In this document: positions 19,661-57,192 of the stretch, piece after piece
Position numbering within the stretch: the stretch's first letter is position 1
Layout: each line of letters starts with the position of its first letter
NCBI RefSeq assembly: GCF_964204865.1
Contig: NC_135250.1
Span: 31,859,395 to 31,923,394, forward strand
Direction: 5' to 3'
Length of the DNA: 64,000 nt
DNA from: Styela clava
Taxonomy: Eukaryota; Chordata; Ascidiacea; Stolidobranchia; Styelidae
Made by a program: the position numbers and the translations under genes
The notes under the pieces: generated by a model
Databases searched by the model: none
Told to the model about the DNA's origin: nothing
Seen by the model: the letters and a program-made list of their open reading frames with translations, nothing else

Positions 19661-20114
19661 GTAGAGACAAAAACGTAAACTCTAGAAACTGATTTTGATT
19701 AAGTTTTCAAAACCTAACAATGATATCAGTCATTTAGGTTTGTGACATAAAAGGAAACTCTGCAACGGGCAATCTCCTGCTTAAATCATTGGGCATAATC
19801 ATTAGAATAATTGTGTGAGATTCGTAACCATATGGGCAAGGAAAAAAGGGTCACTTCATCGTTTTCACTTTAGGATATGAAGTTTGATCGATACTGGAAT
19901 ACCAGAAGGTAGACCTTTTCCAAATTACTGATTTATAATAATATTTTCATATTTATCCTGTAAGATTGACAAGGTGACAGATTAATCACATGAGTTACTA
20001 TGGTTCTTATATCAGGTTAGCATTCCATGGAGGTAATAGGGGTAGATTTTTTATTTTCATCTCGGGGAAAGAAATCCGATGAGATGGGTTACAAGCTCTC
20101 ACCCAGTTCCCAGT

Positions 20115-20270
20115 GGATAGGATTTACATATTTATCCCGGGGGAGAGGAAATCCGATAAGACGGCTTAATCATATGGCGAACCACGGCCTCTTGTCCGGT
20201 TACCAGTCCAGGTCGGGTATGGGATTAGTTAGCCAGTTATTTGTTTTCGGAAGCATGGACTTGACCGTGC
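20115..20270 (-). mobile_element. SINE fragment (tail half), well preserved
   Basis: GGATTTACATATTTATCCCG, then GGCTTAATCATATGGCGAAC and GGATTAGTTAGCCAGTTATT match the SINE consensus closely; similarity stops after the GGAAGCATGGACTTGA block. Confidence 0.65.
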
Positions 20271-20525
20271 ATGTTGCAGTGCATGTTGAGTTTGGAATTA
20301 ATAAGTTAGTTATTGGATTTGTGCATGTACAGATCACTTCCTAATGCTTAGCATAATGCCCCAACCAATCTATCCAGGTACCAATTTGTAAAATGATATA
20401 AAGACACATTAAGTCAGTAAATGATGCAATTTTTCCAAGTTAACAAATTTCCAGTTGGTAGAACTATATAACGCTATAAAGACACACAATAAATAAAGTC
20501 TAACTCAAGTCTTCATTCTTCAAAA

Positions 20526-20873
20526 TCATTCTTCCTCTTCAGGTCCGTATCGTTCTGCGAATATTTCACGATATTTGAAGAACTCTTCATCAGAAGGGCT
20601 TTGAAATTGGACTACTTTCCCCGTCTCGAAGGCTTCAATTCTTTCTCTCATTTGAATAGTTTTGTAAACTCCCCAGGCAGCAATCCCACCCCCTCCTACG
20701 ACAATATAGGCGATTCCTTCAGCAACAGAAATGTCAGGTCCGTGTCCAGCCATCGTTCTACGGCCAGTGTTTTGCGTCGCATTCGCTAGCAATGGTTTTT
20801 TGTTCATGGAACGTAAAGTTGACATTTGACGGGAAAATGTCCCCAATGATTTTCGTAGACCTTGTTGCAACAT
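20526..20873 (-). CDS. Small predicted mitochondrial inner-membrane protein
   Basis: A single uninterrupted frame of 115 residues. The first 40 or so residues are rich in Arg, Lys, Ser and Thr without acidic residues, as in a mitochondrial presequence; RRTMAGHG near residues 38-45 could be the cleavage zone. One hydrophobic, Gly-rich segment (GIAYIVVGGGGIAAWGVYKT) spans about residues 53-73. It is followed by a charged helix and an acidic EEEE end. Size and layout resemble small accessory subunits of respiratory complexes, but I cannot assign one. The DAXX gene starts 968 bases away on the other strand, so the two are divergent. It is intronless within the coding region. Confidence 0.7.
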   Translation of the reverse strand: MLQQGLRKSLGTFSRQMSTLRSMNKKPLLANATQNTGRRTMAGHGPDISVAEGIAYIVVGGGGIAAWGVYKTIQMRERIEAFETGKVVQFQSPSDEEFFKYREIFAERYGPEEEE

Positions 20874-21009
20874 GGCTTCCCCAGTATTCCACGAAACTCA
20901 ACGTAAAGAAATGCAAAATCAACAAACAACAATCAAACGACAACCTCTATCTCGGAACCGACCAAAGTCGATGTATTCAGTGTTGCCAGAATTTTTACAG
21001 ATTTCTCAA

Positions 21010-21165
21010 ATCCATAAAAAGAGAGAGAGAGATTTATTTTCGTCAACCAGAAAAAAAAAAACACTGAAACAATACCAACAATAAAAATGTATAGTTTTTC
21101 GGTATAGACTGGGAGGAGCGATACGACCATACGGTCATCAGAGTCAGCTCCCCCCATATTCACTA
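21010..21165 (-). mobile_element. LINE 3' end with (CT)n tail
   Basis: On the minus strand, a GGTTGACGAAAATAAA terminus is followed by CTCTCTCTCTC. The upstream block GTCGTATCGCTCCTCCCAGT is shared with 63120-63330 and 38800-38970. It lies just upstream of the small mitochondrial protein gene, between it and DAXX. Confidence 0.6.
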
Positions 21166-21840
21166 TTTTAATTATGCATATGAGAATTCTTGAAAATTGA
21201 AAAAAAAAAAAAAATTTTCTATTACAGAAGAAATACAGAAATAATACAGAAAGTAATGACATCCTAAATAGATATCTAATATTGAGTTAGAAACGCAGAT
21301 TTATAATGCTATTCAAAAATTTAATAAATTATGAAATCAATCCTATCAGAATTTACCAAGAATGAATTATATTTTTAATTTTCAAATAGTAATTTTGAAG
21401 TTATATTTGGAATCCTAATCTGCCGAAATATTATAATCGGAATTATCAGCTGCGCTTGGCCGGTTTCTGTTATTTTGCACCGAAAAGCGCGTTTATCTGT
21501 AAGTATTGTCCATTATTTTATACTTTTGCTTGGAATTATTTGTTATTATTTATTGAAATATTTGACAATACAAACTCTCGGTCCCCGATAGAGGGCCATA
21601 GTTAAACGTAAGTCGTAAACGAAACGAAATTTTCCAAAAGCTGCAATACCGGTAACAGCATACCGTACGAAAAAGATTAGCAATTTTCTTGTCAACCATT
21701 GTCCTCCAGACAGGTCGATCGCGAATATTAAAATAAAATCTATTGATCTATGTCTTATATTATATATTTCGATATTTAATCAATTGTGATAATTTTTATA
21801 GTTCTAATAACAATTTTAAAGATAATTAATTGGCTCAGAT

Positions 21841-23268
21841 ATGAGTCAAATTATTGTGATAGACAGCTCTGATGAAGATGATAAACCACTAACAAAAAAT
21901 AATGAAGATGTTAAAAAACCTGCTGCGGAAATCATAAAAAATGGCAAAGATAAAACTGTCGAAAAATTAAACAATCATGACGAATTTTTTTTACAATTTG
22001 TTGATCTGTGCAATAAAGTTGTTGGCGAGAAAGAGGAAGGACGAAAAATAATTTTATTTTTGAATAAAAAATATGAAGAATCATCATTGGATTATAAGAA
22101 TTCAAGGGAATTTCGGAAATTACTTCAACGATATATTTTAAAATTGGATAACGGTTCAAAAGACGTTTTTGTTCTTGTCCATGACGTTGTCTCGATGCTC
22201 GATAAAAGTAATAAAGCGGGGAGTGAAATCAAAAAAGAATTTCCTAAAAGAAAACCATCTGAAAAAGGATTTAATAAAAACGATCTTGCGTCAAAAAAAC
22301 GAAGAGTAAATATTGAATCTATTTGTAAAGATTTATCAGAAAAAGTGGTATCAGATGATGGATTGAGGTGTGAGATAAAAAGCACTGTGTCTTCCTCTAG
22401 TAGCGGTGTTGATGTTAAATCAAAAGAACCTTCTAATAATACGGAAGCAGGTACGAGCTCCACAGAGGATGAACGGACTTCTCATTTAAGACGGAAACGT
22501 AAAAAAAAGATAAAAAACCTTGAAAATTTGTTGAAAAGAATTTCAAATGAAATTATACGATTACAAAACACTGAGTTGTCCTTGGATGACCTTGAAAAAA
22601 GCGACACAAGTTATATTGTCGAATCAAAACTTAAAAAACGATTTATGCAAATCTATACACAGTTATGTAAAATAAACAAGGCCCCTGTACAAACTGGGAG
22701 AGTCATCGAAAAAAAAATCAAAGTACAATCTTCAAGATTTGTGGAAATAAATCAAAAAGTTGCACGATATATAAATAACCCTAGAAGAGGGAACGAATTT
22801 CCAGATTATGGAGATATTTATCATCTTGTGGAACAAGCGAATATAAAAAATAATTTGTGCCTTACGGAATGTCATATTGAAATTAATGCAAAAGAAGTTT
22901 TCAAGGAAGTTGGTGAAAGATTACAAAAACGTCGCGAAAAAGATTTTGTTTTTGAATTTGGGTGCTCATCTATTGATGATAATAAAAATAACCCAGATCC
23001 TGCGCTTTCAGACGAAATTTTGGGGAAAAAATTAACAGAAAATCGGACTCTGGCGAAAGATAATATGAAGACGGTAATCGACAAATATTCCAAACTACAA
23101 AATGATATGGGTGAGCGGTCGCAACAGAATGAAGACAACGGAAAACTCGACGATGAAAGTGACGATTCCGAAAGTGATGAATCCAATGATTCAAAAACGA
23201 TACAAATTGACTCTGATTCTTCTGAAACAGATCTTGATACAAACATTGGGAACGGTGGGGCTAAATGA
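21841..23268 (+). CDS. DAXX: DAXX, histone H3.3 chaperone
   Basis: Intronless frame of 475 residues. It starts with a SUMO-interacting motif (IIVIDSSDEDD, residues 4-14). A helical bundle at about 46-121 matches the DAXX N-terminal domain. Basic KKRR and RRKRKKK clusters follow. The histone-binding domain runs from about 213 to 418, with family hallmarks FPDYGDIYHLVEQA, FKEVGERLQKRREKDFVFEF and DPALSDEILGKKL. The C-terminus is acidic and Ser-rich with a second SUMO-interacting-like motif (TIQIDSDSSETD). DAXX works with ATRX to deposit H3.3 and acts in PML bodies. Vertebrate DAXX is about 740 residues; the central acidic run is shorter here. A possible splice acceptor (CTCAG) ends 2 bases before the ATG. 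The 3' flank has an AATAAA at 23482-23487. Confidence 0.92.
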   Translation: MSQIIVIDSSDEDDKPLTKNNEDVKKPAAEIIKNGKDKTVEKLNNHDEFFLQFVDLCNKVVGEKEEGRKIILFLNKKYEESSLDYKNSREFRKLLQRYILKLDNGSKDVFVLVHDVVSMLDKSNKAGSEIKKEFPKRKPSEKGFNKNDLASKKRRVNIESICKDLSEKVVSDDGLRCEIKSTVSSSSSGVDVKSKEPSNNTEAGTSSTEDERTSHLRRKRKKKIKNLENLLKRISNEIIRLQNTELSLDDLEKSDTSYIVESKLKKRFMQIYTQLCKINKAPVQTGRVIEKKIKVQSSRFVEINQKVARYINNPRRGNEFPDYGDIYHLVEQANIKNNLCLTECHIEINAKEVFKEVGERLQKRREKDFVFEFGCSSIDDNKNNPDPALSDEILGKKLTENRTLAKDNMKTVIDKYSKLQNDMGERSQQNEDNGKLDDESDDSESDESNDSKTIQIDSDSSETDLDTNIGNGGAK

Positions 23269-23700
23269 CCACTGTAAATCGTTAAAGTGAGCTATTTCGA
23301 ATCATTTCCTAGTGCCAGTGCTGCACTTTTTGTGTGAGATTAAATTGTATGTGACTCGATGGAAAAATCTAATAATAACTGACGCTTGTCATTGCAACAC
23401 TTTCAGTTCAATATTTACCGTAATTGCACTGAAAAATGCCACACCCTACTTTGATTCTACCATTCTACAGAGTGGCTGTGAAATAAAAGTTTAAATAACC
23501 ACTGTAAATCATTGAAGTGTAACTGGTCGGAATAATCTAATAGTAACTGGAAACTACCATTGCTGCCCTTTTTCTTAGAGTCAATTTGTACTGAAGTAAA
23601 TATACATGGACCTACTCTAGTGTGATTATAAGTCATTGAAGTGTGACTGGTCAGAATATTCTTATAGTAAAATATATTTGCAGTTGCTGCCAATCGTTGT
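23267..23700 (+). repeat. Diverged tandem repeats in the DAXX 3' untranslated region
   Basis: Units beginning CCACTGTAAATCRTTRAAGTG lie near 23269 and 23499, with a third more diverged unit (TAAGTCATTGAAGTGTGACT) at about 23628 and a partial one near 23350. Each contains a TCTAATARTAACTG or similar block and a CATTGCTGCC-like block. Confidence 0.6.
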
Positions 23701-23893
23701 ATTAGCTAAAAATAGACTAAATCATGATTTACTTTTTTGATTTTTCTAAGATGTCAGAATTTTATTCTGTTTTGAACTTAAAACAATTGTGAATTTTGAT
23801 TGATTAATTTGTTTGAGTTTGAAGTTCATATTTTCATCATGTTTATCGAAACACCGATAGTGTTATTTTTACAGAGTGTGCTATGATATATAT

Positions 23894-24102
23894 AGGGTGT
23901 CCATAAAGTCGTTAAATTTTTTTAAATTGCAAAGGGAATTTATAGATACCATATATTCTTTTGGCCCTCATAGATATATTAAATGAAGTGAAAATATTTG
24001 AACAATTACTGATTAAAAAACAACAAACCTGGTTAAGATATATTGGGAACTGACTTCATAACAAAATTGAAATTGTAAATGGACTTTATAGACACCCTGT
24101 AT
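23894..24102. mobile_element. Mariner-type MITE, TA-flanked
   Basis: The ends AGGGTGTCCATAAAGTC and GACTTTATAGACACCCT are inverted and bordered by TATA. The interior has an AACAACAAACCTGGTTAAG block. Copies also lie at 37264-37460 and 44010-44217. Confidence 0.7.
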
Positions 24103-24482
24103 AGTAGTGTATAGCTATATTTTCTATTAATTGAGTTCGTGTGGGACAAACTACATTTCTTTCAACTATACCAGGGGTCACAAACTGGGGGTAATCAGCC
24201 CCAAAAGAATAATTTAGCAATTTTTCGATGATAATTCGAGTGCTCACAGTTTAAATAGTTTCTTTTGTAATCCCCCTCCTTTGGACTAGTCTGCGGGAAA
24301 GCTGGACATACAATGCTTGCATCTCGCTTAGTCATATGGTTGATAGGGACATGTTAACAATACCTTGCCATACAAATTGCAGGCTAAAGTGTTGAGCTGG
24401 CGCAATTTTAGCATTTCATCGAAGTTGGATGGAAAGATGCAATAGGTGATAGTATTATTGCAATTTTTAGTAAAAAAAAATG

Positions 24483-24719
24483 GGTGCTCCCGAAATATGC
24501 GAACCAAGATGGCGGACATCGGAACGTAACATGGGTAACAGGTTAGGGTTAGGCGATAATTTTTTTTCCAATTTTCCTTATTTTAGTCCTAATATCAGTT
24601 CGAAGACTAGCCAAGAGCCTCTCGTAGTATTTATACCTAAAATTATGGCCTAACCCTAACCTGATACACATATTACATTCTGATGTCCGCCATCTTGGTT
24701 CGCATACTTCGGGAGCCCC
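24483..24719. mobile_element. YY1-motif MITE, copy 1
   Basis: The inverted ends are GGTGCTCCCGAA and TTCGGGAGCCCC. A perfect 8-base target duplication, AAAAAATG, lies at 24475-24482 and 24720-24727. Both arms carry CCAAGATGGCGGAC (inverted on the right). Length 237. Confidence 0.85.
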
Positions 24720-25175
24720 AAAAAATGAGATAACAATTTGACTACTGTGTTATTTTGAAAGGGGTAATTGAACCTTTGGCAATTTGTTTTAAGGGTTATG
24801 ATATTGTTTCCCAATCCTTCCTTCATCGTGAATTTATATCTTATTTATTTTTACATTCCATGTCCATGTGTAGATATACCCATATTGGTACACATACTTC
24901 AGGAGCGCCGAATCTTCTTACCAAAGCTTTGTACTAGCAGTCGCCGATATGTAAGAGCTACAGTTTGAAAGAACTCGAATTTTTTCAAATCGGCATTGTC
25001 TCCTCAATTTACTTGCCTAAGGGTATGATTGCGCAATTACCGGTATTTCTTCATGTCTCCCAATTTCAATTTCTTCTATATACAATGTATATTTTCAGAA
25101 TTGTGTGAAATAGAGCAAGAGTTCATGTATTTTTAATGATGTTGCTTTTTACTCCAGACAAGGTTCTGTACTATA

Positions 25176-25392
25176 GTCACCTGGTTCCATTACATTTGAA
25201 CCCACGTACATTTGAACCCATGACAATTGCACCTGTATGCTATTGCTCCTATGGAATTTTTTTTGTTTCACGGATAGTTAAACCCATACTAACCCTAACC
25301 CATGGGTTTTAGCACCCGCATATAGATTGAACCCGTGGATATAGGCATGGGTTCAAATGTATGTGGGTTCAAATGTACGGTCACCTAGTCAC
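25176..25392. mobile_element. MITE with tandem TTTGAACCCA arms
   Basis: The left arm reads TACATTTGAACCCACGTACA followed by another TTTGAACCC. The right arm is the inverse with GGGTTCAAATGTATGTGGG. The core contains CTAACCCTAACCCATGGG. The whole is nearly palindromic. Confidence 0.6.
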
Positions 25393-25526
25393 CGATATGT
25401 CATATGCTGCTATAGTTTGAAACGAAACAACCCAAATTCTTCTAGTTCGACATTGTGTACCCAATTTATTACCCCCTAGGTGTGGCGGTGGCATTCGAAC
25501 CCCGAGATCTTTCACCCACTATGGCC

Positions 25527-26042
25527 CAGGGGTTCTCAACCTTTTTTCTGTCAAGTACCCCCCCGAGTCACGAAACAATCAATGCGAACCCCCGGAAATC
25601 ATACAGCGAACAAAGTTGTAATATATTGACTAACAATTTGTTGCAACACCAATTTATTGACCTTATGTAACTTAATTAAATTGTCTTGTTGATATTATTG
25701 CCCTTGTCTTCTGCCTAACTAATGAATTCTTAAAATCTCTCCCAAGTTACAATAAGCAAAATCACTTCTCCAATGCTCGCAGCACGCTGTCTTTAGAGAT
25801 TTCACAGTTTGCATGCAAAACTTTGAATTTCACATTGTTGCGCCATAATCACAACAACGCAACATCAGGGAAAATCTACCATTCAACTGGCATCTAGTTT
25901 CAATGGGCATGCATTTTCCTAGGGTAGTAATAAAGGATATTGAAAAAGATCATCACACGAAAACTCCACTGCCATCCAAGTACCCCTGGAAATCTTCTCG
26001 TGAACCCCTGGGAGTTCGCGAACCCCAGGTTGAACACCCCTG
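25527..26042. mobile_element. hAT-type MITE, CAGGGGTTCTCAACC ends
   Basis: It starts CAGGGGTTCTCAACC and ends GGTTGAACACCCCTG. The flanks CTATGGCC and CTCTATGC are only approximately duplicated. A classic hAT MITE layout, about 516 bases. Confidence 0.65.
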
Positions 26043-26188
26043 CTCTATGCCAACATAGCTAAGACAACTCCTCCGGCACTAAGCTATTACGCAACCTAGC
26101 TTCCATTTTTCCTTTTATTATGGCGATTACCCAATTTATGTGCATGTGACTTTTTAATAATGAAAAAATTTTTCATTTTATCTCTTAT

Positions 26189-26190
26189 AG
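26189..26190 (+). other. 3' splice acceptor 6 bases before the first FITM2 start
   Basis: TTTTATCTCTTATAG ends at 26190 and the ATG is at 26197. It is a strong pyrimidine-rich acceptor with no upstream coding exon recognised. Confidence 0.65.
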
Positions 26191-26196
26191 GACATA

Positions 26197-27069
26197 ATGT
26201 TGGATTTCTTAATTAAGTATTATCTAATCAGACCTCAATTTAGAGTTCTATTCATATGGATTGGCGTTTTAGCATTATCTGGTCTAAAAGAATTTGTCTT
26301 CATTCCTGACTCGTATTTTTCCGATTCAACGAATTTTTTCAACATTTACATCGTCAAGTACAATTGGATTTGGACCGTTTGGCTTGTAACCCCATATGCA
26401 TTTATAACAAGTTTTGTTTATTCCTGCGACCATTGGAAACGAGGTTCTGTCGCTACTGGGCTGAGATGGCTATTTCTCACTGGACTTTTTTACTTTTGGA
26501 CAATTGTTTTCGACGGAATCAGCAACCTAACTGGGCTATGCTTTGATTCTGCCAGAAATCCACTGTTAGACATCACAGATAAGCAGTCATGTATGAAATT
26601 GGCGGGAACCAATCGCTGGCGAAGTTTTGAAATTTCAAATCAAGCTTTCACATTAACCCTTTCAGCACTGGTGATAGCCTCGGAGCTACAAATCCAAAAA
26701 TACTGGAAATACATCTCAACCCACGCAGCAGAGACTTCACCGTGTTTAGCTATCGGATCAAAGTCCCTTATCAGGCTAAAAGCGAGGCATAAAACAACGA
26801 AAACAACAATAAACTATTTATTTATTTTCTGTTCAATTTTGAGCATTTTTTGGGAATTTTCCCTAATTTGTACCTGTCTGTATTCTCATGGTTTTATCAC
26901 TAAAGCGTTAGGTGCTGCTTTCGGAATTTTGTCATGGATGGTTGCATATTTAGAATTATTCCGTAACCGCTCTTTCCCTATTTATCCTGGTTACGGCCAT
27001 CTAAAGTCTTTGATCACCCACACGCCGGCTAAGGAGAACAGGAATGGGGTGGATAAAAAGAAAGAATAG
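26197..27069 (+). CDS. FITM2-like protein, first tandem copy, catalytic His lost
   Basis: 290 residues in one coding exon with about six hydrophobic segments. Family hallmarks are the NIYIVKYNWIWTVWL stretch (residues 49-63), the FEISNQAFTLTL stretch (144-155) and ICTCLYSHGFITKALGAAFG (224-243). FIT2 proteins are endoplasmic reticulum membrane acyl-CoA diphosphatases needed for lipid droplet budding, with two conserved histidines (155 and 214 in human FITM2). The second is kept here as His231. The first is replaced: the family's DISGH reads EISNQ, giving Gln149, codon CAA at 26641-26643. The paralogue 2.4 kb downstream keeps both. It is therefore probably inactive in the known reaction or has changed role. 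The frame is intact, so it does not look like a pseudogene. Confidence 0.88.
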   Translation: MLDFLIKYYLIRPQFRVLFIWIGVLALSGLKEFVFIPDSYFSDSTNFFNIYIVKYNWIWTVWLVTPYAFITSFVYSCDHWKRGSVATGLRWLFLTGLFYFWTIVFDGISNLTGLCFDSARNPLLDITDKQSCMKLAGTNRWRSFEISNQAFTLTLSALVIASELQIQKYWKYISTHAAETSPCLAIGSKSLIRLKARHKTTKTTINYLFIFCSILSIFWEFSLICTCLYSHGFITKALGAAFGILSWMVAYLELFRNRSFPIYPGYGHLKSLITHTPAKENRNGVDKKKE

Positions 27070-27453
27070 TCGTTTTTTATTAGAGGAAACTTCAAAATTT
27101 TGAATTGTCAAATTAGGCCATAGCATCTTGCAGGCCAAAAAACAGGGATTTTGACATTTAGTCCTAACGGTCTAAAATGCGTTCAAGATACGAAGAATTG
27201 CTATTTGTGATACAGAAAATACTTTTTTTACATTAAGAAATGAGGGGTTCCAACCCGCAATGCCCCCATCGACCTTGGGTTGGAAAAATTTTTGCATTTT
27301 TTATTGGGTGTTGTCCATAGTATCCAAATAGTTCAATATTTTAGATTTTTATTTTGTAATTATTAGCAATCATTGCTATCATAGAGGTTTGCTCAAAGTA
27401 AAAAATGTGTGAAAGGAGTATAACTATAAACTAGAGCTGCGTGCAGCTTTAAC

Positions 27454-27959
27454 AGGCTTCCCGCGTAAAAAAAACTGAAGACGCGTTTTGCTCACTGGAG
27501 CATGAAAGCGTGGTCAGTCATGCATAAAATTTGCAATTTATGATGGGGGACTTATTATCTGCATGTGATGTAAATTTCAAGTCTCTAAGTAGTGTCGTTC
27601 TCGAGAAGAAGATGAAAATGTAAAATCCTATATTGCTCACTGGAGCGTATCGCCGAGGTCACTCATGCGTATCCTTGACATATTGTATCCAGAACATGTC
27701 CATTAATCATTGTTAGGAATTTCAACCCAATACCATGTATCAATTTTGAGAAATCGTAAAAAAACTGAAGACGCGTTTTGCTCACTGGAGCGTGAAAGCG
27801 TGGTCAGTCATGCATAAAATTTGCATTTTATTGCTAGCTGAGAACTTCTGCACATTTGAGGTTTTAATTTCAAGTTTGTAGGACCAATTTGAAAAAAAAA
27901 TAATAATAATAAAACACAGGAATACAATAGGTTCCCTGCTGACAAGCAGCGGGAAGCCT
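27454..27959. mobile_element. MITE or Helentron-like element, AGGCTTCCCGC ends
   Basis: The inverted ends are AGGCTTCCCGC and GCGGGAAGCCT. Each is next to a small palindrome (AGCTGCGTGCAGCT on the left, CTGCTGACAAGCAG on the right). Inside, a block around CTGAAGACGCGTTTTGCTCA occurs twice (27474 and 27765) with more than 90 percent similarity. It lies in the spacer between the FITM2 copies. Confidence 0.6.
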
Positions 27960-28089
27960 AATAATTGATTTAATATGTTGTAACTAAATTCTATAGATAA
28001 GAATCAAATTTTTGTATTTGTGGAAGTTGGAAGCCAAAAATTTATTCAAAACTTTGAAATTCAGTGTCTGATTTAGGTTTTTATAGGAG

Positions 28090-28900
28090 TATGAAATAAT
28101 ATGTTGTGTGCTACGATGTATCGAAAAATCTGGGAATTTAAACAACTTGTTTGAACCGGTTTGAATAAGCCAGAGTGCAGTATTTTTAATTTTGTTCCGA
28201 CAGAACTCTTTGCTACCTTAAACGTTCCCATAATTTTTGTTACTATTTCACTCCCAGCTCTGTAAAGCAACTTGTAACAATCATATTGTTTCGTTTTCTA
28301 AGTACTGGGAATTATATGTATGGTGCTACTATGTATCTGGCAAATCGGAAATTTAAACAACTTACCTTGGATGGGTTCGTAAGCACTAGTGTGCAATATT
28401 TTTTCAATTTCATTCTGGCAAAACTCTTTGCAACTTAAACGTTGCCATAATTTTTGTTACTATTCCACTCTCAGCTCTGTGTAGCAAACTCGTTATTTAC
28501 AATCATATTGTTTCTTTTTCTTGGTAAATAAGAGAATTATATGTGATGTGCTACTATATATATGGGAAAAGTAAATTTAACAACTCATCCTAGCAGGGTT
28601 TAAGAGAGCTAAAGTGCATTACTGTTTAATTTCAAAATGCTTTGTGACCTCAAAATTGTGGCCGAAGATGAAAACAAATATTTCAGATTATTTTTGACTG
28701 AAATTTTTCACTCCCATCTCTGTGAAGCAAGCTTCCTACAATCATAGTATTCTTTTTCTTAGGGAAAAATTAATAACCTATGAGGTTATACTATGTATCA
28801 GTAAAGTCGGGAATTTAAACCACTAAGCTAGGCATGATTTATGAAAGTGCATTATTGTTCATTTTCATCCTGACACAGTTCTTTTAACCTCAAATTGTAG
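28090..28900 (+). repeat. Tandem array of about 230-base units before FITM2 copy 2
   Basis: Three full units and a partial one share CACTCCCAGCTCTGTGAAGC-type starts (28248, 28465, 28708), then ACAATCATATTGTTT, a pyrimidine-rich tract, CTACTATGTAT and GGAAATTTAAACAACTT-like blocks. The block CTGCTCTGTGAAGCAAAC recurs at 29375, immediately before the splice acceptor of the second FITM2 gene. Confidence 0.7.
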
Positions 28901-29422
28901 TGCCATCTGTGTGCGTCTGCTTACCACCACAGCTACCTTATATGTTATTTCATTATATAGTGGTTTCCAAACCCAATGGTTATTGAGTGAAATAGTTTAA
29001 TAACACTTTATGTTTTGTTTTCTTTTTGCGTTCTAGACACAGCCAGTTATTACGTCGTTATCACAGTTAAAGTTCTGTATATTCATAAACAATTCAATCA
29101 CACCAGTTTCTTAATTTTTCGTACTGTTATCGATATCTGTCCCTTGTGAGCGCTCCACTTTACTGCCCGCGAATATCTCATTTTTCTCATTTTCTGGTGA
29201 ATCAGCTTTTGGAACCACAGCAGTAAACAAACATACATCAATGGCATTTGTCGAAATAGATCTTTTATATGCCAACACTGATCAATATTTGATACATTAC
29301 CTAAATATTTATCTGCAAATGTTGTTTATTCTTTTTGCAAACTTTCACAGTAGATTTAAGTTAAGTTTCAACTCCCTGCTCTGTGAAGCAAACTTGCAAT
29401 AATCGTAATGTTTTTTCTTCTC

Positions 29423-29424
29423 AG
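29423..29424 (+). other. 3' splice acceptor before FITM2 copy 2
   Basis: TTTTTTCTTCTCAG ends at 29424, and the first in-frame ATG follows at 29455. The acceptor lies in the last copy of the local tandem repeat. Confidence 0.65.
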
Positions 29425-29454
29425 TTAAAAACTGATAATCTATTATTAAATAAG

Positions 29455-30300
29455 ATGTTGAATGCACACAAAAGTTGGCCCTGGTTGTATTTGGAGGCAG
29501 TTGCTCTATTTGTCGGAGTTATTATTTTGTCAGCTTTTCGTGAGTTTTTCGACATTCCAGAAACGTACTTTTCGAGCAAAAGAAATATTTTAAACCAATA
29601 TTTTGTGAAGTTTGGATGGGCGTGGACATTGGCCCTCTCAGCACTGTACGTACTCACTGGGACAGTGAATTATTACAAACAATACAAGCGGAAACTTTTC
29701 AATGCACTTGCTCGAAGCGTCATACTTACCATCTTTTGGTTTCTATTTACCATCACTCTGTTTGGAGCTGTAAGTAGAATTACTTACCCAGACTGTGTTA
29801 ACTATGACGGTAAAATAATTGAAAATGTCACGGATGAGCGATCATGCATGAAATTGGCGGGAAAGCATTACTGGATTGGTTTTGATATTTCGGGACATGC
29901 TTTTATTTTAACCCTTACGATACTGATGATATCTTCAGAACTACAAAAGCAATATTGGAAAACATCAGAGAGATCAGAGGGTTATGTTGGGTTACATTCA
30001 AAAGCTGCAATGGACATTTTATTGCCATTTTTTTATGGATTAAACCTCGTTTTAATCTTTATTTGGGGTATTTCTTTAATAGCCACCTGTCTATATTTCC
30101 ATGTATTTCTAAGTAAAATGCTTGGGGCAGGTTTTGGGATATTCTCATGGTGGATTTGCTATTTTAAAATCTTCCCTTTTCTATCTATCTCGTTAAGCGA
30201 TGAAAATGGAACTAACCCTGACTCAAACTTGAATCCTCTTTTAGCTGAGAAGATTACTGAAGCAGAGTCTAAGTCAAATCCAAAGAAAAAATTATGCTGA
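29455..30300 (+). CDS. FITM2: FITM2, fat storage-inducing transmembrane protein, second copy
   Basis: 281 residues in one coding exon, started at the first ATG after the acceptor at 29424; an upstream in-frame GTG is intronic. Strong family matches are the SSKRNILNQYFVKFGWAWTL stretch, YWIGFDISGHAFILTL and LIATCLYFHVFLSKMLGAGF. Both catalytic histidines are present (His148 in DISGH and His216 in YFH, equivalent to human 155 and 214), as expected of an active acyl-CoA diphosphatase that supports lipid droplet formation at the endoplasmic reticulum. The C-terminus is Lys-rich. It shares clear similarity with the copy at 26197, so the pair is a tandem duplication. An AATAAA lies at 30381-30386. 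NDUFB7 follows about 1.1 kb downstream on the same strand. Confidence 0.92.
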   Translation: MLNAHKSWPWLYLEAVALFVGVIILSAFREFFDIPETYFSSKRNILNQYFVKFGWAWTLALSALYVLTGTVNYYKQYKRKLFNALARSVILTIFWFLFTITLFGAVSRITYPDCVNYDGKIIENVTDERSCMKLAGKHYWIGFDISGHAFILTLTILMISSELQKQYWKTSERSEGYVGLHSKAAMDILLPFFYGLNLVLIFIWGISLIATCLYFHVFLSKMLGAGFGIFSWWICYFKIFPFLSISLSDENGTNPDSNLNPLLAEKITEAESKSNPKKKLC

Positions 30301-30409
30301 TTGAGGGGCTGGTTTAAATAGGTTATTATCTCCTTCCCACTGATTTTGTTTTGTTTGATTTTGTTAGCTAAAAAATAGACAATAAAGTATAATTGAGTCA
30401 GAGTTTAAA

Positions 30410-31120
30410 GAGGACAATCGTAACCTTTACTTTAAGATAATATTATAAAAATGGAAATATTTTTAAGGTTTTCTTACGTACTATAAATGGAATGAATTAG
30501 TAAATTTTATGATTAAAGACGATATTTCTTCATTTTATGATTTATTCTATGATTTCAAGTATTTTGTTTCTTACAGTTTTATTGTGCAGATGTTGAAATA
30601 ACTGTGTCATGCCAGAAGAATTTGGTTTGAACAAAATTTGGAATTAATAATGCCTATAAAAGAGATATTGATAAGAGATATCTTAAGTGTTTAAAGCTAT
30701 GAAAATCACTATGTAGAAAGCTTTTTTTTTGTTCCAAAGGAGAGGGTTCCAAACGTCCACATAATTGGATGTCTTTTGTGTATCAATTTCCTTTTGGAAA
30801 TGGTGAAATGCCACTCAACTATCAAATCCTGATATATACCAGAAGGTCACTATAGATAAGACAAGTTCTGAAGGAATCTCACTGCTTTGAATACCATTTG
30901 ACCTTTCACTGTTTTTGTTGGTCTATCATGTTGCATTAGATACGAAAACTATAGATTTTTAGCATATAAAATATTCAAGTTTTTCCAATTAATCAAGGGC
31001 ACATGACAAATTTATTTTTCAATGCGTTCAATTTTAGTTTAAAATTTGTATTGTAAGCATATAAATACCTTCGATAGTTTACGAATTGCTTTTAATTCTT
31101 AGGTATCCCCTATCTGTTTT
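30410..31120. other. AT-rich spacer, nothing recognised
   Basis: No repeat family, RNA gene or coding frame was recognised between the FITM2 polyadenylation signal and the MITE fragment at 31121. Confidence 0.4.
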
Positions 31121-31195
31121 ATTGGTGCTCCCGAAGTAGGCGCATCAAGATGTCACACAACCTGAACCCTGACCTGGTACACAACGTGAGTTCCC
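31121..31195. mobile_element. Fragment of YY1-type MITE, C variant
   Basis: GGTGCTCCCGAAGTAGGCG followed by ATCAAGATGTCACACAACC matches one arm of the variant copies at 36634 and 60593. The second arm is missing. Confidence 0.5.
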
Positions 31196-31355
31196 CCCCT
31201 CCCCCCTTCCTTCAATTTTTAACTTGGAATTTGAAAATGAGCATTGTACACGTAAAAATCCCTCGATTTTTCTAATATATTTTTTAATTAAGTAATCAGA
31301 ACACTCCCTGCATATCACACTGTTTAATAATAAATGTTTAATTTGATGTTTTTCC

Positions 31356-31357
31356 AG
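31356..31357 (+). other. 3' splice acceptor 34 bases before the NDUFB7 start
   Basis: GATGTTTTTCCAG ends at 31357; the ATG is at 31392. No coding exon lies upstream. Confidence 0.6.
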
Positions 31358-31391
31358 TTAGTTGAGCCCATAGGTGTCAGATACGACCACC

Positions 31392-33809
31392 ATGGGGCAA
31401 GGTGTAATGAAGAGCATTCATTTGGAGGATGAGCCGATCGACAAACCAGAAATGTTTGCTAAATACAAGGAGTATGGCGCAGAGGATAGGCCTGTCAGAA
31501 GTGAGTGGGACATGATTACTAAAATGTGTTTATTTTTTAACGAGAGGAAAGGTGGTTAGTTTCCTCAATCATGTGGGTATGTATGTAAAGGAAAGTTGAT
31601 TAGGCGGCAAACCACATCCTCACAGCTGGTTACCAACTCTGGTCTGTATGGAAATAGCTAACCATTATAAGGTAGTAAGTAAGTAGTCTTGGTTTGAACC
31701 TATAGACCAGGGGTCGGCAACCTACGGCCCGGATCCGGCCCGCGGAGCAATATGATCCGGCCCGGGACGCTTCACTGAATTATAGTAAAAAATTATAGCT
31801 GTTTCGTCGATTATCTTCTTTACGCAAAAGAATTTACGTGTAGACTAAATTATATTATAACGTAACAAGTATATAATTCACAATAACTTGTCTAATGAGC
31901 CTATAATCTAATTATAATTTAGACAAAGGGCAACAAAACGCAGAAAAGTTGATGCTAAGTGCAAATGGTTTAATGGCGCAAAAATATTCAAATGGTCAGT
32001 CTTCGCGCGCTGCTTAAAATTTAACTTCTGATCTGTGTGATAAAATGTGATTCATCGGTCATCCATTCGATTTTTAACTTTCCAAAAATATGTGCGGCCC
32101 GTCAATGACTTGCAACCTTTAATTTTGGCCCGCGAGCGACAAAAGGTTGCCGACCCCTGCTATAGACCTTCACACAAAAATATCAGAAGATGCCATGCCT
32201 AACGCTTAGCAAGATGCACCAACCAATGTACAATGACATCCCGGCTGTTCTAGTTTAGCCAGTTATGTTTGTTGTATTACATCCCCCAAGATGGTGGAGA
32301 AAGCCGTGTCCTGCCACTTTTCAATATCTGAGGCAATCAGAGCTGCGTAAAATTTACATTTAAGTTGAGAAAATATTTTCCATTTCTGAACTCCTGTAAA
32401 AATCAAATTCTTATATTGAAAAATTCTTATTGATTTAATTGAACAAATCTTCTAATTGATTGTGCCTAATGAAATTTGTTTTTCGCTTAGTTATTATAAA
32501 AAAAATTTTGATCATCCCTGCTAGTAAACCCCAATACTTTGAAAGATTTAAAATATTAAGGTTCTGCTCTTATCAAGTCACCTATTTTTAACAATCATTT
32601 CAGAAATGGCAGTTACAAGAGAAGAAATGAATCTGGGACAAATACCTCGTGAAAGCCGTGACTACTGCGCCCAACATTTCATGGCGTACAAGAAATGCAT
32701 TAGAGAGTGGATGCCGCAGTATCGGAAGTGCATGCATCAACTTCACCATTACCATGATTGCGAGATAGAAGAGTGAGTTAAAGGAATATAGACTGCAATT
32801 AATATAACAACCTCTTCTTGTTACTAATCAGTGTCGGATTTGTCAGTGTCGGTCCCCAAACCAGGGGTCATGACCCCAAATTGTGTCGGAGTGATAAGTA
32901 GGTAGGTTCGCAAACAGGTCATGGGATCGGCGGGGTCGCTGAGTTATGGTAGATGATGGATGTACAAAACATCTGAAATTTGACATACCATGTTAAATTT
33001 AGCAGCTTGCACCATGGCTTACTGTAAAACAGGCCTATAGGCATCACTCTATGCTTATGCTATAGAAAATGTAGGTGCTTATTGTGACATCACTGTTTGG
33101 TTTTAGCTTACTTTACCTGTCCTATACCACCACATGACCAAACTCATAAGTCAAATGAAAGAAGCTCTAAAGTCCCATGAAAAATATATTCATTGACCTG
33201 GGGTCGCACTGGACACTCGAAAGTTGTTATTGGGGTCGTCCTGGAAAAAGCTTGGGAACCCCTGACTTACATGTTTATGCCGGGGGAGAGGAAAAACGGC
33301 TTTGTCATATGGCAAACTACAACCTCCTTTCCCAGTTAAAGTCTGGACGGAATTAGTCAGCCAATTGAGTTTCAGATGCGTGGACTTGATGGTGGAGGAA
33401 GCTGTAACCAACTAGCGATCACACATGAACCACCCTACGGCATTGAGGAGTCCAGCAATCCTCTCGCACATAATTATTCCTATGAGATTTGAACTTTAGA
33501 ACCTATGCAGGGTAATTAGAGATGTTGTATCAAATGTTTCCATAACACTTCGTATGGTCCCTCGATCTGATCAACAAAATTAGCAGTATATACCAGTATA
33601 AATGTGATTTCTAATAAGGGACTTTTTTTTTGAATTTACAATGGTATTCTCCAAACACTCATTAGCAGCCATTTTAAAGAGCTTTATGTCTTTGATTTTT
33701 CAGCCAAATTATTCGAAGAAAAGAATATGAGAGAACTAAGCGCCTAATGAAGCGTGACAAGGAGCGAGCAAGACGGGAGGCGAGAGAAGCAGCGGCCGCA
33801 GCACAATAA
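31392..33809 (+). CDS. NDUFB7: NDUFB7, mitochondrial complex I subunit
   Basis: Three exons, 31392-31500, 32604-32772 and 33704-33809, encode 127 residues (human 137). The middle exon carries the twin CX9C motif: Cys-x9-Cys in CAQHFMAYKKC and again in CMHQLHHYHDC, the disulfide-bonded CHCH hairpin imported into the intermembrane space by MIA40. Before it, RKMAVTREEM aligns with the family's conserved entry into the domain. After it comes a long basic helix ending in an Ala run. Met-Gly at the start keeps the N-myristoylation site known in mammals. The subunit sits on the intermembrane-space side of complex I. AATAAA motifs overlap the stop and recur at 33846-33851. A hAT MITE (31708-32159) occupies intron 1; a hAT MITE and a SINE fragment occupy intron 2. 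Confidence 0.95.
31708..32159. mobile_element. hAT-type MITE, CAGGGGTCGGCAACC ends
   Basis: The inverted ends are CAGGGGTCGGCAACCT and AGGTTGCCGACCCCTG. A perfect 8-base duplication, CTATAGAC, lies at 31700-31707 and 32160-32167. It is in NDUFB7 intron 1. A copy in the opposite orientation is at 49302-49755. Confidence 0.88.
32862..33264. mobile_element. hAT-type MITE, CAGGGGTCATGACC start
   Basis: It starts CAGGGGTCATGACCCC and ends GGGAACCCCTG. The inner arms carry GGGGTCG blocks. Target duplication is not clear. It is in NDUFB7 intron 2. Confidence 0.55.
33270..33520 (-). mobile_element. tRNA-derived SINE, truncated, in NDUFB7 intron 2
   Basis: GCCGGGGGAGAGGAAAAACG begins the reversed tail and GGAGTCCAGCAATCCTCTCG marks the body. 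The head is mutated, with no intact B box. Confidence 0.6.
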
Positions 33810-34183
33810 ATAAACTCATTTGAATTTTTTGTTTATATATCTAAAAATAAAATATGTTTTCTCTTCTCACTGTTTCTCAATGATCAGAGTTTTCAAATTA
33901 ATGGTGTGTGGGCATCAACAAAAGTCTTAATAATATCCTTTTTAAATAGTGTGTGCGTTGATGTGGCCTATTGAAACAATCTATTTGGTGGCGCGGAATC
34001 AAATGAAGCATTCCAGTGTGCCAAAAAAGCAATTTATGAATGCGACATTGGCGCCGTATTTGGCCATTGGCGGCCTGGAAATCTAGGTAAAAAGCTGGGT
34101 ACAAGTTTTGGTTACATAGTGGTGTATCAATACCATTCTCAGGTTTGGCTCCTAGACTGTTCTGACGAAACCCTGGTTGAAAG

Positions 34184-35494: not shown

Positions 35495-35666
35495 GGGGCT
35501 CCCGAAGTATGCAAACCAAGATGGTGGACATCGTAATGTAATATGTGTACTAGGTTAGAGTTAGGCCATAATTTTAGGTATAAATACTACGGGAGGCTCT
35601 TGGCTACCTGTTACCCATGTTACGTTCCGATGTCCGCCATCTTGGTTCGCATACTTCGGGAGCACC
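35495..35666. mobile_element. YY1-motif MITE, internally deleted copy
   Basis: The ends are GGGGCTCCCGAAG and CTTCGGGAGCACC. It keeps AACCAAGATGGTGGACATCG on the left and the inverted motif on the right. About 65 bases of the core are missing. Confidence 0.75.
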
Positions 35667-44518: not shown

Positions 44519-44748
44519 GGTGCTCCCGAAGTATGCGAACCAAGATGGCGGACATCGGAACGTAACATGGGTAACAGGTTAGGCGATAATTTTTTTCCAA
44601 TTTTCCTTATTTTAGTCCTATTATCAGTTCGAAGACTAGCCAAGAGCCTCCCGTAGTATTTATACCTAAAATTATGGCCTAACCCTAACCTAGTACACAT
44701 ATTACATTCCGATGTCCACCATCTTGGTTCGCATACTTCGGGAGCCCC
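44519..44748. mobile_element. YY1-motif MITE, copy 3
   Basis: The ends are GGTGCTCCCGAAGTATGCG and CATACTTCGGGAGCCCC. AACCAAGATGGCGGACATCG is on the left, inverted on the right with one change. Target duplication is unclear. Confidence 0.8.
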
Positions 44749-46273: not shown

Positions 46274-46510
46274 GGGGCTCCCGAAGTATGCGAACCAAGA
46301 TGGCGGACATTGGAATGTAATATGTGTACTAGGTTAGGGTTAGGCCATAATTTTAGGTATAAATACTACGGGAGGCTTTTGGCTAGTCTTCGAACTGATA
46401 ATAGGACTAAAATAAGGAAAATTAGAAAAAAAATTATCGCCTAACCCTAACCTGTTACCCATGTTACGTTCCGATGTCCGCCATCTTGGTTCGCATACTT
46501 CGGGAGCACC
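46274..46510. mobile_element. YY1-motif MITE, copy 4
   Basis: The ends are GGGGCTCCCGAAG and CTTCGGGAGCACC. A perfect 8-base duplication, CATTTTGG, lies at 46266-46273 and 46511-46518. AACCAAGATGGCGGACATTG is on the left and its inverse on the right. Length 237. Confidence 0.9.
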
Positions 46511-47294: not shown

Positions 47295-50200
47295 TCAGTC
47301 AATGGATAAAAGTTCGATCTCAAAATACAACGTAGCATTGGAAGGAATCTTCGCTTCTGGCTTTCCCGCCTTCCCATAAGCATATTGAGGCTCAATTGTG
47401 ACCTCACACTTTTCTCCAACCGACATCGCCATGACAGCCTGGTCCCAACCAATGATCACCTCACTCTTGCCGACTTTAAATTGTAAAGGCTGATTTTTCT
47501 TCTTTTTAGTTCCCTGTGTAAGACTGTCAAACACAGTCCCATCTTCTAGTTTACCCACATAATAGCATTTCACTTTGTCCCCTGGTTTGGGGAAATTTGT
47601 TTTGTCCCCCTTTTTCAAGACATTGGTTTTCTTGAACTTGGGTGGGCCAGTGTCATCTTCTGTAGTTTTTTTTGCCTTCGATTCACTAGTGGACAATGTC
47701 TCGACCTTTTTAGTCAAATCAGCGACAGGCTTGTCTCCTGTAAATTCAAAATAGACATTTATTTCAAACGATAATAGATGGCTAAATAACGAGGTAAACC
47801 ACGACCTCTTATCTCTTTTCACCATGTATGATTCATGGGCTCTCGTAATAGTGTCAATACCTGTACAATTTTTCACAATTATCTCAAGAAAGAGAGGAAT
47901 GCCAATTTGACAATTTAGTTTATTGGCGAACCAAAGCCTTTCCTTATCAGTGGTGGGCGGACATTTAATCATTTCATATTCATGTAGGATTGGATAGGAT
48001 TTATATATTAATCCAGCGGGAGAGAAGAGCCGATAAGACAGCTTAACCATATAGAAAAGCACGGCCTCTCGTCCAATTACCATTTCATGTCGGGTAGGGA
48101 ATCAGTTACTTGTTTACGGAAGCATGGACTTGATAGTGGAGGAAGCCGTAATTGTATGTACCTGATGGCTGGATGGTAGAAGCAGTGTTCAGGTGTTACT
48201 GTGATATGGCAAGTATGTTTCGAACACAAAATGTCGCAATGGTCCAGTCCCTCTCTACTCTCACCAACCAGAATGTTTCCGGCAACAGAGCATCATATTT
48301 CTATCAGACCAGCCCAACAGTCTCGAGGGGTCTCATGTAGTTTCGTACCTATCGTACTTCTAGTAGGCGTAGCATAACAATTTTTTCATGTGTCAATCCT
48401 AACCCTCATCTGACTACACCATCCAAAATTTACATCACTACGACGTCACAGTGATGTAATAGATAGGCTTACCATAAATCTGAAACAAAAAACCGGGACG
48501 GTGCGATTTGGCAAACATTCGGTTGATTGCCAGTCTTTGTAATATTGAAACGTCTACCAAGCCATTGCGGGTATATACGGCTCTAAATCTCTATACTGAT
48601 CATTGAATTAGAAAAAACACAAAAAAATAGTTTGTATTATTTATTTAGACCAAAAGTATTTGTTTGCAGATGGAACCCTTCTCAAAAATTCTTGTTTTGA
48701 TTTTGTCATAAAACTGATAACAAGAGACATCACCATTAAATTTGCAGGTTACGAGTGCTTTTATATTTTCTTCTGGCATTCTGAACCTGCTTCCAGACCA
48801 GAAAGTTTTAACAATGGAGAAAAAATCTGTTCAACAGATGCCGATGTTCCGGCAAACAAAATCAACGAGTTTCTGCAAATTCGAAATGCTAATATTTCTG
48901 TTAGAAAAAACGTTAAACATCTCTGTCCACTTAAATTCAACCGCAAAGTAAGCCAAATTGCATTTGAACCATGCTCAGACAAATATCTCCTTATCAGTAT
49001 TCGTCGAAAAGTGCATCTCTATTCAAAACCTGACTAGCTAACCGAACATATCATTTATCAATTTTGCAAACCAAACACTTTAGTCCAGTTTAAATCACCC
49101 ATAATTTGTCCATATGTGGGGCCTGGGGAGCATTTTAGGCTTCATCATGCAGCTCTATATACCGCAAACATTCTTTTTAAATACAGTTACATCGATTTCG
49201 CCAGAGCGTTCCAAGGATTCCAGAAGTATAAGTGATTGCGACGGAATTAACAGTCTTCACCCTTTTTCCTTCAAATTTAGCTTCACCTCTGACATCTACG
49301 GCAGGGCTTGGCAACCTTTTGTCGCTCGCGGGACAAAATTAAGGGCTGCGAGTCATTGGCGGGCCGTACATATTTTTAGAAAGCTGAAACCGAACGAATG
49401 ATACTTTTTATAATAAAAATCAAGCAGTAATACATCTTTCGAATAGAATATAGATTTACTTCCTCATTGCATCGCAAAAAATTGCATTTGAATATTTTCA
49501 GCGCCATTGAACCCTTTGCACTTCGCATCATTTTTCTGCGTTTTGTTGCCATTTGTCTAATTATAATTAAATTATAGGCTCATTAAACTAGTAGTTGTGA
49601 ATTATATACTTGTTAGGTTATAATATAATTTAGTTTAAAAAATATAATCGTCAAAACGGCTGTTTTGTTACTATAATTTAGTGAAGCGTCACGAGCCGGA
49701 TTATAATATTCTGCAGGCCGGATCCGACCCTGGAACCGTAAGTTGCCGACCCCTGATCTACGGCATTAGTATTATCTTTTTTCAAAATTAAAATAATTTT
49801 GTTGGAGTAGGTGAGCTGGCAAAGGACAAATTTCAAGTGAAGTTCGTACGCTGGAACATTTAAGCATAAGAGTAGGACATCCTTCTTGATAATTTGAATA
49901 ACTTATCAAGCTTTCAAACAGTTCAGTAATCCTTTGCAAAGCAGGTAATAAAGGGAAAACCCGAGTGTTGCCATGCTGTAATAGCCGTTGATACTATCAA
50001 CAAAATCGCAGAATGATTTCTCTTCTGTTACTCGGACAGTGTATATGTAATAATATTTATACATTTTGACAACAACACAAACAGGCAAAGTATCTACGGC
50101 ATGTTGAAAATGGCATCGCAGTGCACAGTTGAACTACATAGTATGCACAATCTATACCGGTTATACTTCTTTTAGTTTGAAAAAAGCATTATTTGTTTTT

Positions 50201-52923: not shown

Positions 52924-53159
52924 GGGGCTCCCGAAGTATGCGAACCAAGATGGCGGACATCGGAATGTAATATGTGTACTAGGTTAGGGTTAGGCCATAA
53001 TTTTAGGTATAAATACTACGGGAGGCTCTTGGCTAGTCTTCGAACTGATAATAGGACTAAAATAGGGAAAATTGGAAAAAAATGATCGCCTAACCCTAAC
53101 CTGTTACCCATGTTACGTTCCGATGTCCGCCATCTTGGTTCGCATACTTCGGGAACACC
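52924..53159. mobile_element. YY1-motif MITE, copy 5
   Basis: GGGGCTCCCGAAGTATGCG starts it and CATACTTCGGGAACACC ends it. Flanks ATTTTTTT and ATTTTTGT are near-duplicates. The CAAGATGGCGG motif is intact on both arms. Confidence 0.82.
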
Positions 53160-56961: not shown

Positions 56962-57192
56962 GGTGCTCCCGAAGTATGCGAACCAAGATGGCGGACATCG
57001 GAACGTAACATGGGTAACAGGTTAGGCGATAATTTTTTTCCAATTTTCTTTATTTTAGTCCTATTATCAGTTCGAAGACTAGCCAAGAGCCTCCCGTAGT
57101 ATTTATACCTAAAATTATGGCCTAACCCTAACCTAGTACACATATTACATTCCGATGTCCGCCATCTTGGTTCGCATACTTCGGGAGCCCCT
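56962..57192. mobile_element. YY1-motif MITE, copy 6
   Basis: GGTGCTCCCGAAGTATGCG and the inverse CATACTTCGGGAGCCCC. Flanks GGCTTATC and GGCTCATC match at seven of eight positions. CAAGATGGCGG is intact on both arms. Confidence 0.85.

What the first reader, a model, noticed from the sequence alone, without database searches (positions are those of the whole stretch)
26197..27069. FITM2 paralogue that has lost one of its two catalytic histidines
Seen: two tandem FITM2-type genes. The downstream copy keeps both family histidines (DISGH and YFH); the upstream one has EISNQ in place of DISGH, so Gln149 replaces the first, while the second (His231) is kept. The open frame and the other motifs are intact. 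Known: both histidines are needed for the acyl-CoA diphosphatase activity of human FIT2. Inference: a membrane pseudoenzyme or new-function copy under selection, perhaps a lipid sensor or partner of the active copy.
Basis: partly seen in the sequence, partly recalled or inferred. Interest (0 to 1): 0.75.

Follow-up and report, generated by a model that had tools for sequence, protein, structure and literature searches.

The report
FIT2 duplicate with eroded catalytic face
An animal genome carries two neighbouring copies of a fat-droplet gene (FIT2/FITM2); one of them has lost key parts of its enzyme active site but otherwise looks like a working membrane protein, a pattern already described for FIT2 duplicates in other animals.

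Summary
The central observation is real. The 26197-27069 frame encodes a 290-aa FIT protein (PF10261, 39.8 bits) and 29455-30300 a 281-aa sister (83.2 bits). Gln149 (CAA, 26641-26643) sits where the sister has His148; His231 is kept. No third FIT match was found in the 376.6-Mb genome. The sister itself lacks the third triad acid (Ser220). In Pfam score the loss is greatest in the luminal active-site blocks and about nil in the TM4 and TM5 blocks. The upstream copy is not evolving faster overall (24 against 27 unique changes, recalled human FITM2 as outgroup), so it is probably a retained protein. Hayes et al. 2017 already report catalytic-residue divergence in five of seven FITM duplications, including His-to-Asp in a Limulus copy. 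Whether it is catalytically dead is open: PgpB without this His keeps 27% activity on a diphosphate substrate. Tunicate origin and expression were not verified.

The parts
26197..27069 (+). upstream FIT/FITM2-type gene, single open coding frame, 290 aa, degenerate catalytic site
   Evidence: frame; PF10261 39.8 bits, profile 3-240 of 240; one of two FIT matches found in the genome
26623..26643 (+). C2 motif region SFEISNQ (residues 143-149); sister and recalled human FITM2 read GFDISGH
   Evidence: putting the sister's block 141-152 in gains 20.3 Pfam bits
26641..26643 (+). codon CAA, Gln149, in place of the C2 histidine (H-1)
   Evidence: His there in silico raises the Pfam score from 39.8 to 45.5
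26884..26901 (+). C3 core SHGFIT (residues 230-235): His231 kept; S230 for conserved F, T235 at the third triad position
   Evidence: motif definition from PMC5798408 passages
26326..26343 (+). loop 1/2 motif STNFFN (residues 44-49): both Asn kept, Lys lost ([K]xNxxN); sister KRNILN
   Evidence: sister's block 40-60 gains 13.9 bits
26188..26190 (+). splice-acceptor-like TAG after a pyrimidine-rich stretch, 6 nt before the ATG (5' UTR intron or trans-splice acceptor, inferred)
   Evidence: last base 26190, 12 of 15 pyrimidines; background 0.106 such sites per 50 nt
27055..27066 (+). C-terminal KKKE, a KKxx-type ER retrieval signal by sequence
   Evidence: rule from PMC5798408 section 8
29455..30300 (+). 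downstream FIT/FITM2-type gene, 281 aa, GFDISGH and YFH kept, third triad residue Ser220, ends KKLC
   Evidence: (83.2 bits)
29422..29424 (+). splice-acceptor-like CAG 30 nt before the downstream ATG

Best explanation
The upstream gene is an old tandem duplicate of FITM2 that still makes an ER membrane protein with the FIT body, but whose luminal lipid-phosphatase centre has been largely dismantled: C2 general-acid His to Gln, its Gly to Asn, the Phe before the C3 His lost, no acid at the third position, loop 1/2 Lys lost. Most likely it keeps a non-catalytic FIT function (binding or partitioning di- and triacylglycerol through the transmembrane core, alone or with the sister) with little or no acyl-CoA diphosphatase activity. 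Shown: the residues, where family-likeness is lost, the old divergence, the open frame. Shown only with recalled outgroups: balanced protein rates. Inferred: loss of activity, lipid binding, ER location, expression.
For: (1) In-silico swaps: His, Gly, Phe or Glu at four positions raise the Pfam score by 5.7, 5.4, 6.2 and 5.1 bits. (2) Of ten sister blocks put into the upstream protein, C2 gains most (+20.3 bits over 12 residues), then loop 1/2 (+13.9), residues 85-113 (+10.1), 61-84 (+8.0) and C3 (+5.0); 153-172 (TM4) +1.2 and 209-226 (TM5) -1.0 hardly change. (3) Relative rates are balanced: 24 upstream-only against 27 downstream-only changes with recalled human FITM2 as outgroup, 23 against 24 with FITM1. 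Of 77 sites alike in both human paralogues, upstream-only departures are 3 of 7 motif sites against 3 of 70 elsewhere (Fisher p 0.008; sites chosen after seeing the alignment); downstream-only departures are 0 of 7 and 8 of 70. (4) Synonymous sites are near saturation while protein identity is 35% (NG86 dS 2.80, dN 0.61; ML rejects omega = 1, 2dlnL 55). (5) An unconstrained frame has a 5% chance of staying intact at K 0.022-0.038 (assumed indel rates); one neutral episode giving both an intact frame and at least 3 changes in codons 148-149 has probability at most 3.4e-5. (6) KKxx end and loop cysteines kept. (7) Published precedent.
Against: Current selection, expression and protein stability are untested. 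No AATAAA or ATTAAA lies within 800 nt after the upstream stop (first AATAAA 27908, 839 nt on; weaker variants at 27397 and 27425; the sister has AATAAA 81 nt on). The nucleophilic His231, both loop 1/2 Asn and Lys236 are kept, which a fully non-catalytic protein would not need. A low FIT score is not itself a mark of a dead enzyme: recalled human FITM1, which keeps both His, scores 50.3. No structure could be modelled.
Confidence: 0.55

Rival explanations
1. Altered enzyme, not pseudoenzyme: the C3 His still attacks the phosphoanhydride and, because the leaving group of a diphosphate needs little protonation, activity survives without the C2 His, with changed substrate range.
For: His231, Lys236 and both loop 1/2 Asn are kept. 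In E. coli PgpB the C2 His-to-Ala variant keeps 27% activity on the diphosphate C55-PP but 0.09% on the monophosphate PGP (PMC7413402, passages); acyl-CoA cleavage by FIT2 is also at a phosphoanhydride. That paper cites other work with about 20-25% left on two DGPP substrates and, in conflict with its own data, 140% on PGP. Hayes et al. note that residues beside the core can set substrate range.
Against: More than the His is gone. In PgpB, Gly-to-Ala in SGH leaves 0.8% and Gly-to-Asp no detectable activity on C55-PP, and C3 Asp-to-Ala 0.07%; the upstream copy has Asn at that Gly and Thr at that Asp. But Asp at the Gly is normal in algal/SAR FITMs, and another group found 50% PGP activity for the Asp-to-Ala variant (cited), so transfer from PgpB is uncertain. 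Single substitutions in the presumed site of yeast FITMs, Yft2p H-1-A among them, prevented rescue of growth (abstract and passages).
Confidence: 0.28
2. A gene in early decay: the sister suffices, and the catalytic-site changes are the first sign of loss of function.
For: Lower Pfam score (39.8 against 83.2); no AATAAA or ATTAAA within 800 nt of the stop; no expression evidence available.
Against: Open 290-codon frame, balanced relative rates (recalled outgroups), acceptor-like site 6 nt before the ATG, KKxx end kept. Several site changes together with an unbroken frame do not fit one recent neutral episode (at most 3.4e-5).
Confidence: 0.12
3. Sequencing or assembly error at codon 149.
For: One base separates CAA from a His codon; no reads could be examined.
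Against: N148, S143, S230 and T235 also depart from the family (for three of them, 45 for S143), so one base would not give back the motif; the frame is otherwise clean.
Confidence: 0.02

Closest known systems
Limulus polyphemus FITM2A2 (Hayes et al. 2017, PMC5798408, passages)
   Same: FITM2 duplicate in which the C2 His (H-1) is replaced while a sister keeps it; authors call it likely to inactivate LPT-like activity
   Different: Asp there, Gln here; here Gly, Phe and the third triad acid are also changed; here both copies carry KKxx ends, whereas the five minor duplications of that paper differ in predicted localisation
Vertebrate FITM1, and the few FITM1s (particularly fish) with altered key residues (same paper, passages)
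   Same: paralogue with a diverged catalytic site beside a conserved FITM2
   Different: separate duplication: the two window copies group together against recalled human FITM1/2 (100% of 200 bootstraps in an unrooted four-taxon tree)
Lipid phosphatase-related proteins (LPR/PRG) within the lipid phosphatase superfamily
   Same: lost catalytic residues and a proposed lipid-sensing role (PMC5798408 passages)
   Different: those lose the C3 His (H-2); here that one is kept and the C2 His is lost

Membership tests
FIT/FITM family (PF10261) | match to the family profile above its curated cut-off | tested here: met
   39.8 bits (upstream) and 83.2 (downstream), cut-off 21.4, profile positions 3-240 of 240
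FIT/FITM family (PF10261) | six transmembrane segments, both ends cytosolic | tested here: inconclusive
   simple hydropathy scan only did not resolve six segments; TM labels in this report are inferred from the alignment with recalled human FITM2 and published topology
FIT/FITM family (PF10261) | paired cysteines in luminal loop 3/4 | tested here: met
   C115/C132 upstream, C114/C131 downstream
Catalytically competent FITM (H-1, H-2, E-3 triad) | C2 motif with His (SGH; G may be S or D) | tested here: not met
   upstream SNQ; downstream SGH meets it
Catalytically competent FITM (H-1, H-2, E-3 triad) | C3 His (H-2) | tested here: met
   His231 upstream, His216 downstream
Catalytically competent FITM (H-1, H-2, E-3 triad) | third residue E (sometimes Q or H, rarely D) in HxxxE | tested here: not met
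   Thr235 upstream, Ser220 downstream; range of residues from PMC5798408
Catalytically competent FITM (H-1, H-2, E-3 triad) | acyl-CoA diphosphatase activity | not testable with these tools
   needs purified protein
Pseudoenzyme under selection | purifying selection on the non-catalytic copy | tested here: inconclusive
   old constraint supported, but no orthologues: genome contigs and viral-contig scans found none (these collections hold no animal genomes as such)

The most novel reading that the evidence does not exclude
The upstream copy is a natural separation-of-function FITM: it still partitions neutral lipid at the ER but cannot cleave acyl-CoA, so lipid handling and catalysis have been split between two tandem genes.
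Probability: 0.35. Interest if true: 0.6.

Novelty: new member of a known kind. Interest (0 to 1): 0.38.

Why it matters
Whether FIT2 acts in droplet formation by cleaving acyl-CoA or by handling neutral lipids is unsettled: a 2024 review says none of the proposed functions is confirmed in vivo (PMC11169642, passages), while a 2023 mouse liver study says its findings support acyl-CoA diphosphatase action in vivo (PMC10027564, abstract and passages). A natural pair in which only one copy has a near-complete catalytic site would let the two roles be tested apart. It also adds a further case to the pattern that FITM duplicates diverge at the catalytic site. It differs from the five minor duplications of Hayes et al. 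in that KKxx ends are kept in both copies.

Tried and rejected
Rejected: a third FIT gene (one profile and one protein search of the genome gave the same two places; introns and best-candidates-only scoring limit both); another histidine standing in for H-1 (none within the two motifs); gene conversion around CMKLAG...F.I, where 6 successive identical-residue sites share their codon (shuffle P 0.29); an ncRNA in 20000-34000 (no Rfam match at gathering scores).

Led nowhere: relatives in genome contigs (153 pattern hits, none confirmed) and viral contigs (35, none); solved structures (none at E <= 1 for the downstream protein; upstream not searched); the paper reporting the human enzyme (not held); paper searches FITM2+tunicate, fat storage-inducing transmembrane+ascidian, FITM2+Ciona, FIT2+pseudoenzyme (0 papers each).

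Results against my reading: no near AATAAA/ATTAAA; family score is also lost in the 61-84 and 85-113 blocks (+8.0, +10.1) while the sister's loop 4/5 block scores worse (-10.4), so the loss is greatest at the active site, not confined to it; the first 39 residues were not swapped and the last block lies mostly beyond the profile match; PgpB data show that loss of the C2 His alone need not abolish diphosphate cleavage.

Full report
Observation. The window (G000:C1:31859395-31923394 of a 376.6-Mb assembly in 379 contigs) holds two + strand frames, 26197-27069 (290 aa) and 29455-30300 (281 aa). Both match PF10261 over profile positions 3-240 of 240, at 39.8 and 83.2 bits against a cut-off of 21.4; they are 35% identical. 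One profile and one protein search of the genome found these two places and no third (the searches ignore introns and score the best candidates only). Neighbours are a DAXX-type gene upstream and NDUFB7 downstream (exon 32606-32773, 61 bits).

Hayes et al. 2017 (PMC5798408; passages and section 8 read) describe the FITM centre as C2 SGH (H-1) and C3 HxxxE (H-2 and E-3, the latter sometimes Q or H, rarely D), with F before H-2 and a conserved K after the motif, plus [K]xNxxN in loop 1/2. The upstream copy departs at H-1 (Q), the Gly of SGH (N), the F before H-2 (S), E-3 (T) and the K of loop 1/2 (S). It keeps H-2, the K after C3, both Asn and the loop cysteines. Of these positions the downstream copy departs at E-3 only (S220). 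That both copies have Ser/Thr there suggests the change predates the duplication (inference). In Pfam score, His, Gly, both, Phe or Glu put into the upstream protein give 45.5, 45.2, 50.8, 46.0 and 44.9 against 39.8; Gln149Ala gives 39.3 and His231Ala 33.7. In the downstream protein (83.2) His148Gln gives 77.8, His216Ala 77.0 and Ser220Glu 87.8. So Gln is scored about as badly as Ala at H-1. As yardsticks, recalled human FITM2 and FITM1 score 83.6 and 50.3.

Where family-likeness was lost. Ten chimeras, each with one block of the upstream protein replaced by the sister's (residues 1-39 were not swapped), changed the score by: 40-60 +13.9, 61-84 +8.0, 85-113 +10.1, 114-140 +0.9, 141-152 (C2) +20.3, 153-172 (TM4) +1.2, 173-208 -10.4, 209-226 (TM5) -1.0, 227-246 (C3) +5.0, 247-290 -0.7. 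The match ends near residue 251, so the last block says little. C2 is the strongest in total and per residue. TM4, which holds the FIT signature where an FLL-to-AAA mutant changes droplet size and number (PMC2875400, passages), is hardly worse than the sister's. TM labels are inferred from the alignment.

Is it a live gene? Synonymous differences are near saturation (NG86 dS 2.80, dN 0.61; ML omega 0.04 at a poorly bounded t; omega = 1 is 27.5 log units worse). That shows long constraint on the pair, not on one branch. Four-taxon branch lengths are 0.89 (upstream) and 1.07 (downstream), with the two copies together against the human pair in 100% of 200 bootstraps. So the upstream copy is not the faster one, yet its unique departures at sites alike in both human paralogues are enriched in C2/C3 (3 of 7 against 3 of 70, p 0.008; small numbers, sites named after seeing the alignment); the downstream copy's are 0 of 7 and 8 of 70. 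An unconstrained frame would have a 5% chance of staying intact at K 0.022-0.038, depending on the assumed indel rate. Such a frame would be unlikely to gather at least 3 changes in codons 148-149 as well (at most 3.4e-5 at an assumed indel ratio of 0.1). Both genes have an acceptor-like site just before the ATG (26190, 6 nt; 29424, 30 nt; background 0.106 per 50 nt), fitting a 5' UTR intron or trans-splicing. Against: the first AATAAA after the upstream stop is 839 nt away. No expression data were available.

How it may work. In PAP2-type enzymes the C3 His is the nucleophile, and the C2 His is thought to protonate the leaving group and activate water (PMC7413402 passages). In PgpB, C2 His-to-Ala leaves 27% activity on C55-PP but 0.09% on PGP; SGH Gly-to-Ala leaves 0.8% and Gly-to-Asp none detectable on C55-PP; C3 Asp-to-Ala leaves 0.07%; C3 His-to-Ala none. 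The same passages cite conflicting work by another group (His-to-Ala 140% and Asp-to-Ala 50% on PGP). Since acyl-CoA is cleaved at a phosphoanhydride, loss of the C2 His alone would not prove a dead enzyme. The joint loss of the Gly, the His and an acid at the third position makes strong reduction likely (inference). I therefore favour a retained FITM with a largely non-catalytic, lipid-handling role (0.55) over an altered enzyme (0.28), decay (0.12) and error (0.02).

Known or new. Hayes et al. report five of seven FITM duplications with a diverged catalytic residue, a Limulus copy with H-1 to Asp 'likely to inactivate', and a few FITM1s, particularly in fish, with major changes. The words Ciona, tunicate, urochordate and ascidian do not occur in their main text. 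By their rule (C-terminal di-lysine = ER) both window copies are predicted to be ER-resident (KKKE and KKLC), unlike the five minor duplications of that paper. So this is a further, more eroded case of a known kind. My searches for FITM2 with tunicate or Ciona, and for the full family name with ascidian, found no paper in the held library, which lacks most subscription journals.

Noticed in passing
24483-24719; 35495-35666; also 29-mer hits at 44541-44726, 46296-46488, 52946-53137, 56984-57169: Interspersed fold-back (MITE-like) element: inverted arms of 81 nt (90% complementary) and 61 nt (85%) in the two places examined; a 29-mer taken from the first arm matches 11 times in the window with up to 3 mismatches, mean 0.00 in shuffles.
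   Followed up: partly
30112-30114: The presumed active sister itself lacks the canonical third triad residue (Ser220 in HVFLS), so its own activity is not assured.
   Followed up: partly
21841-23268: DAXX-type protein in one 475-aa open frame, matching both the histone-binding and the N-terminal DAXX families.
   Followed up: no
47298-48101 minus strand: Open frame with a C-terminal FKBP-type peptidyl-prolyl isomerase domain (109.4 bits).
   Followed up: no
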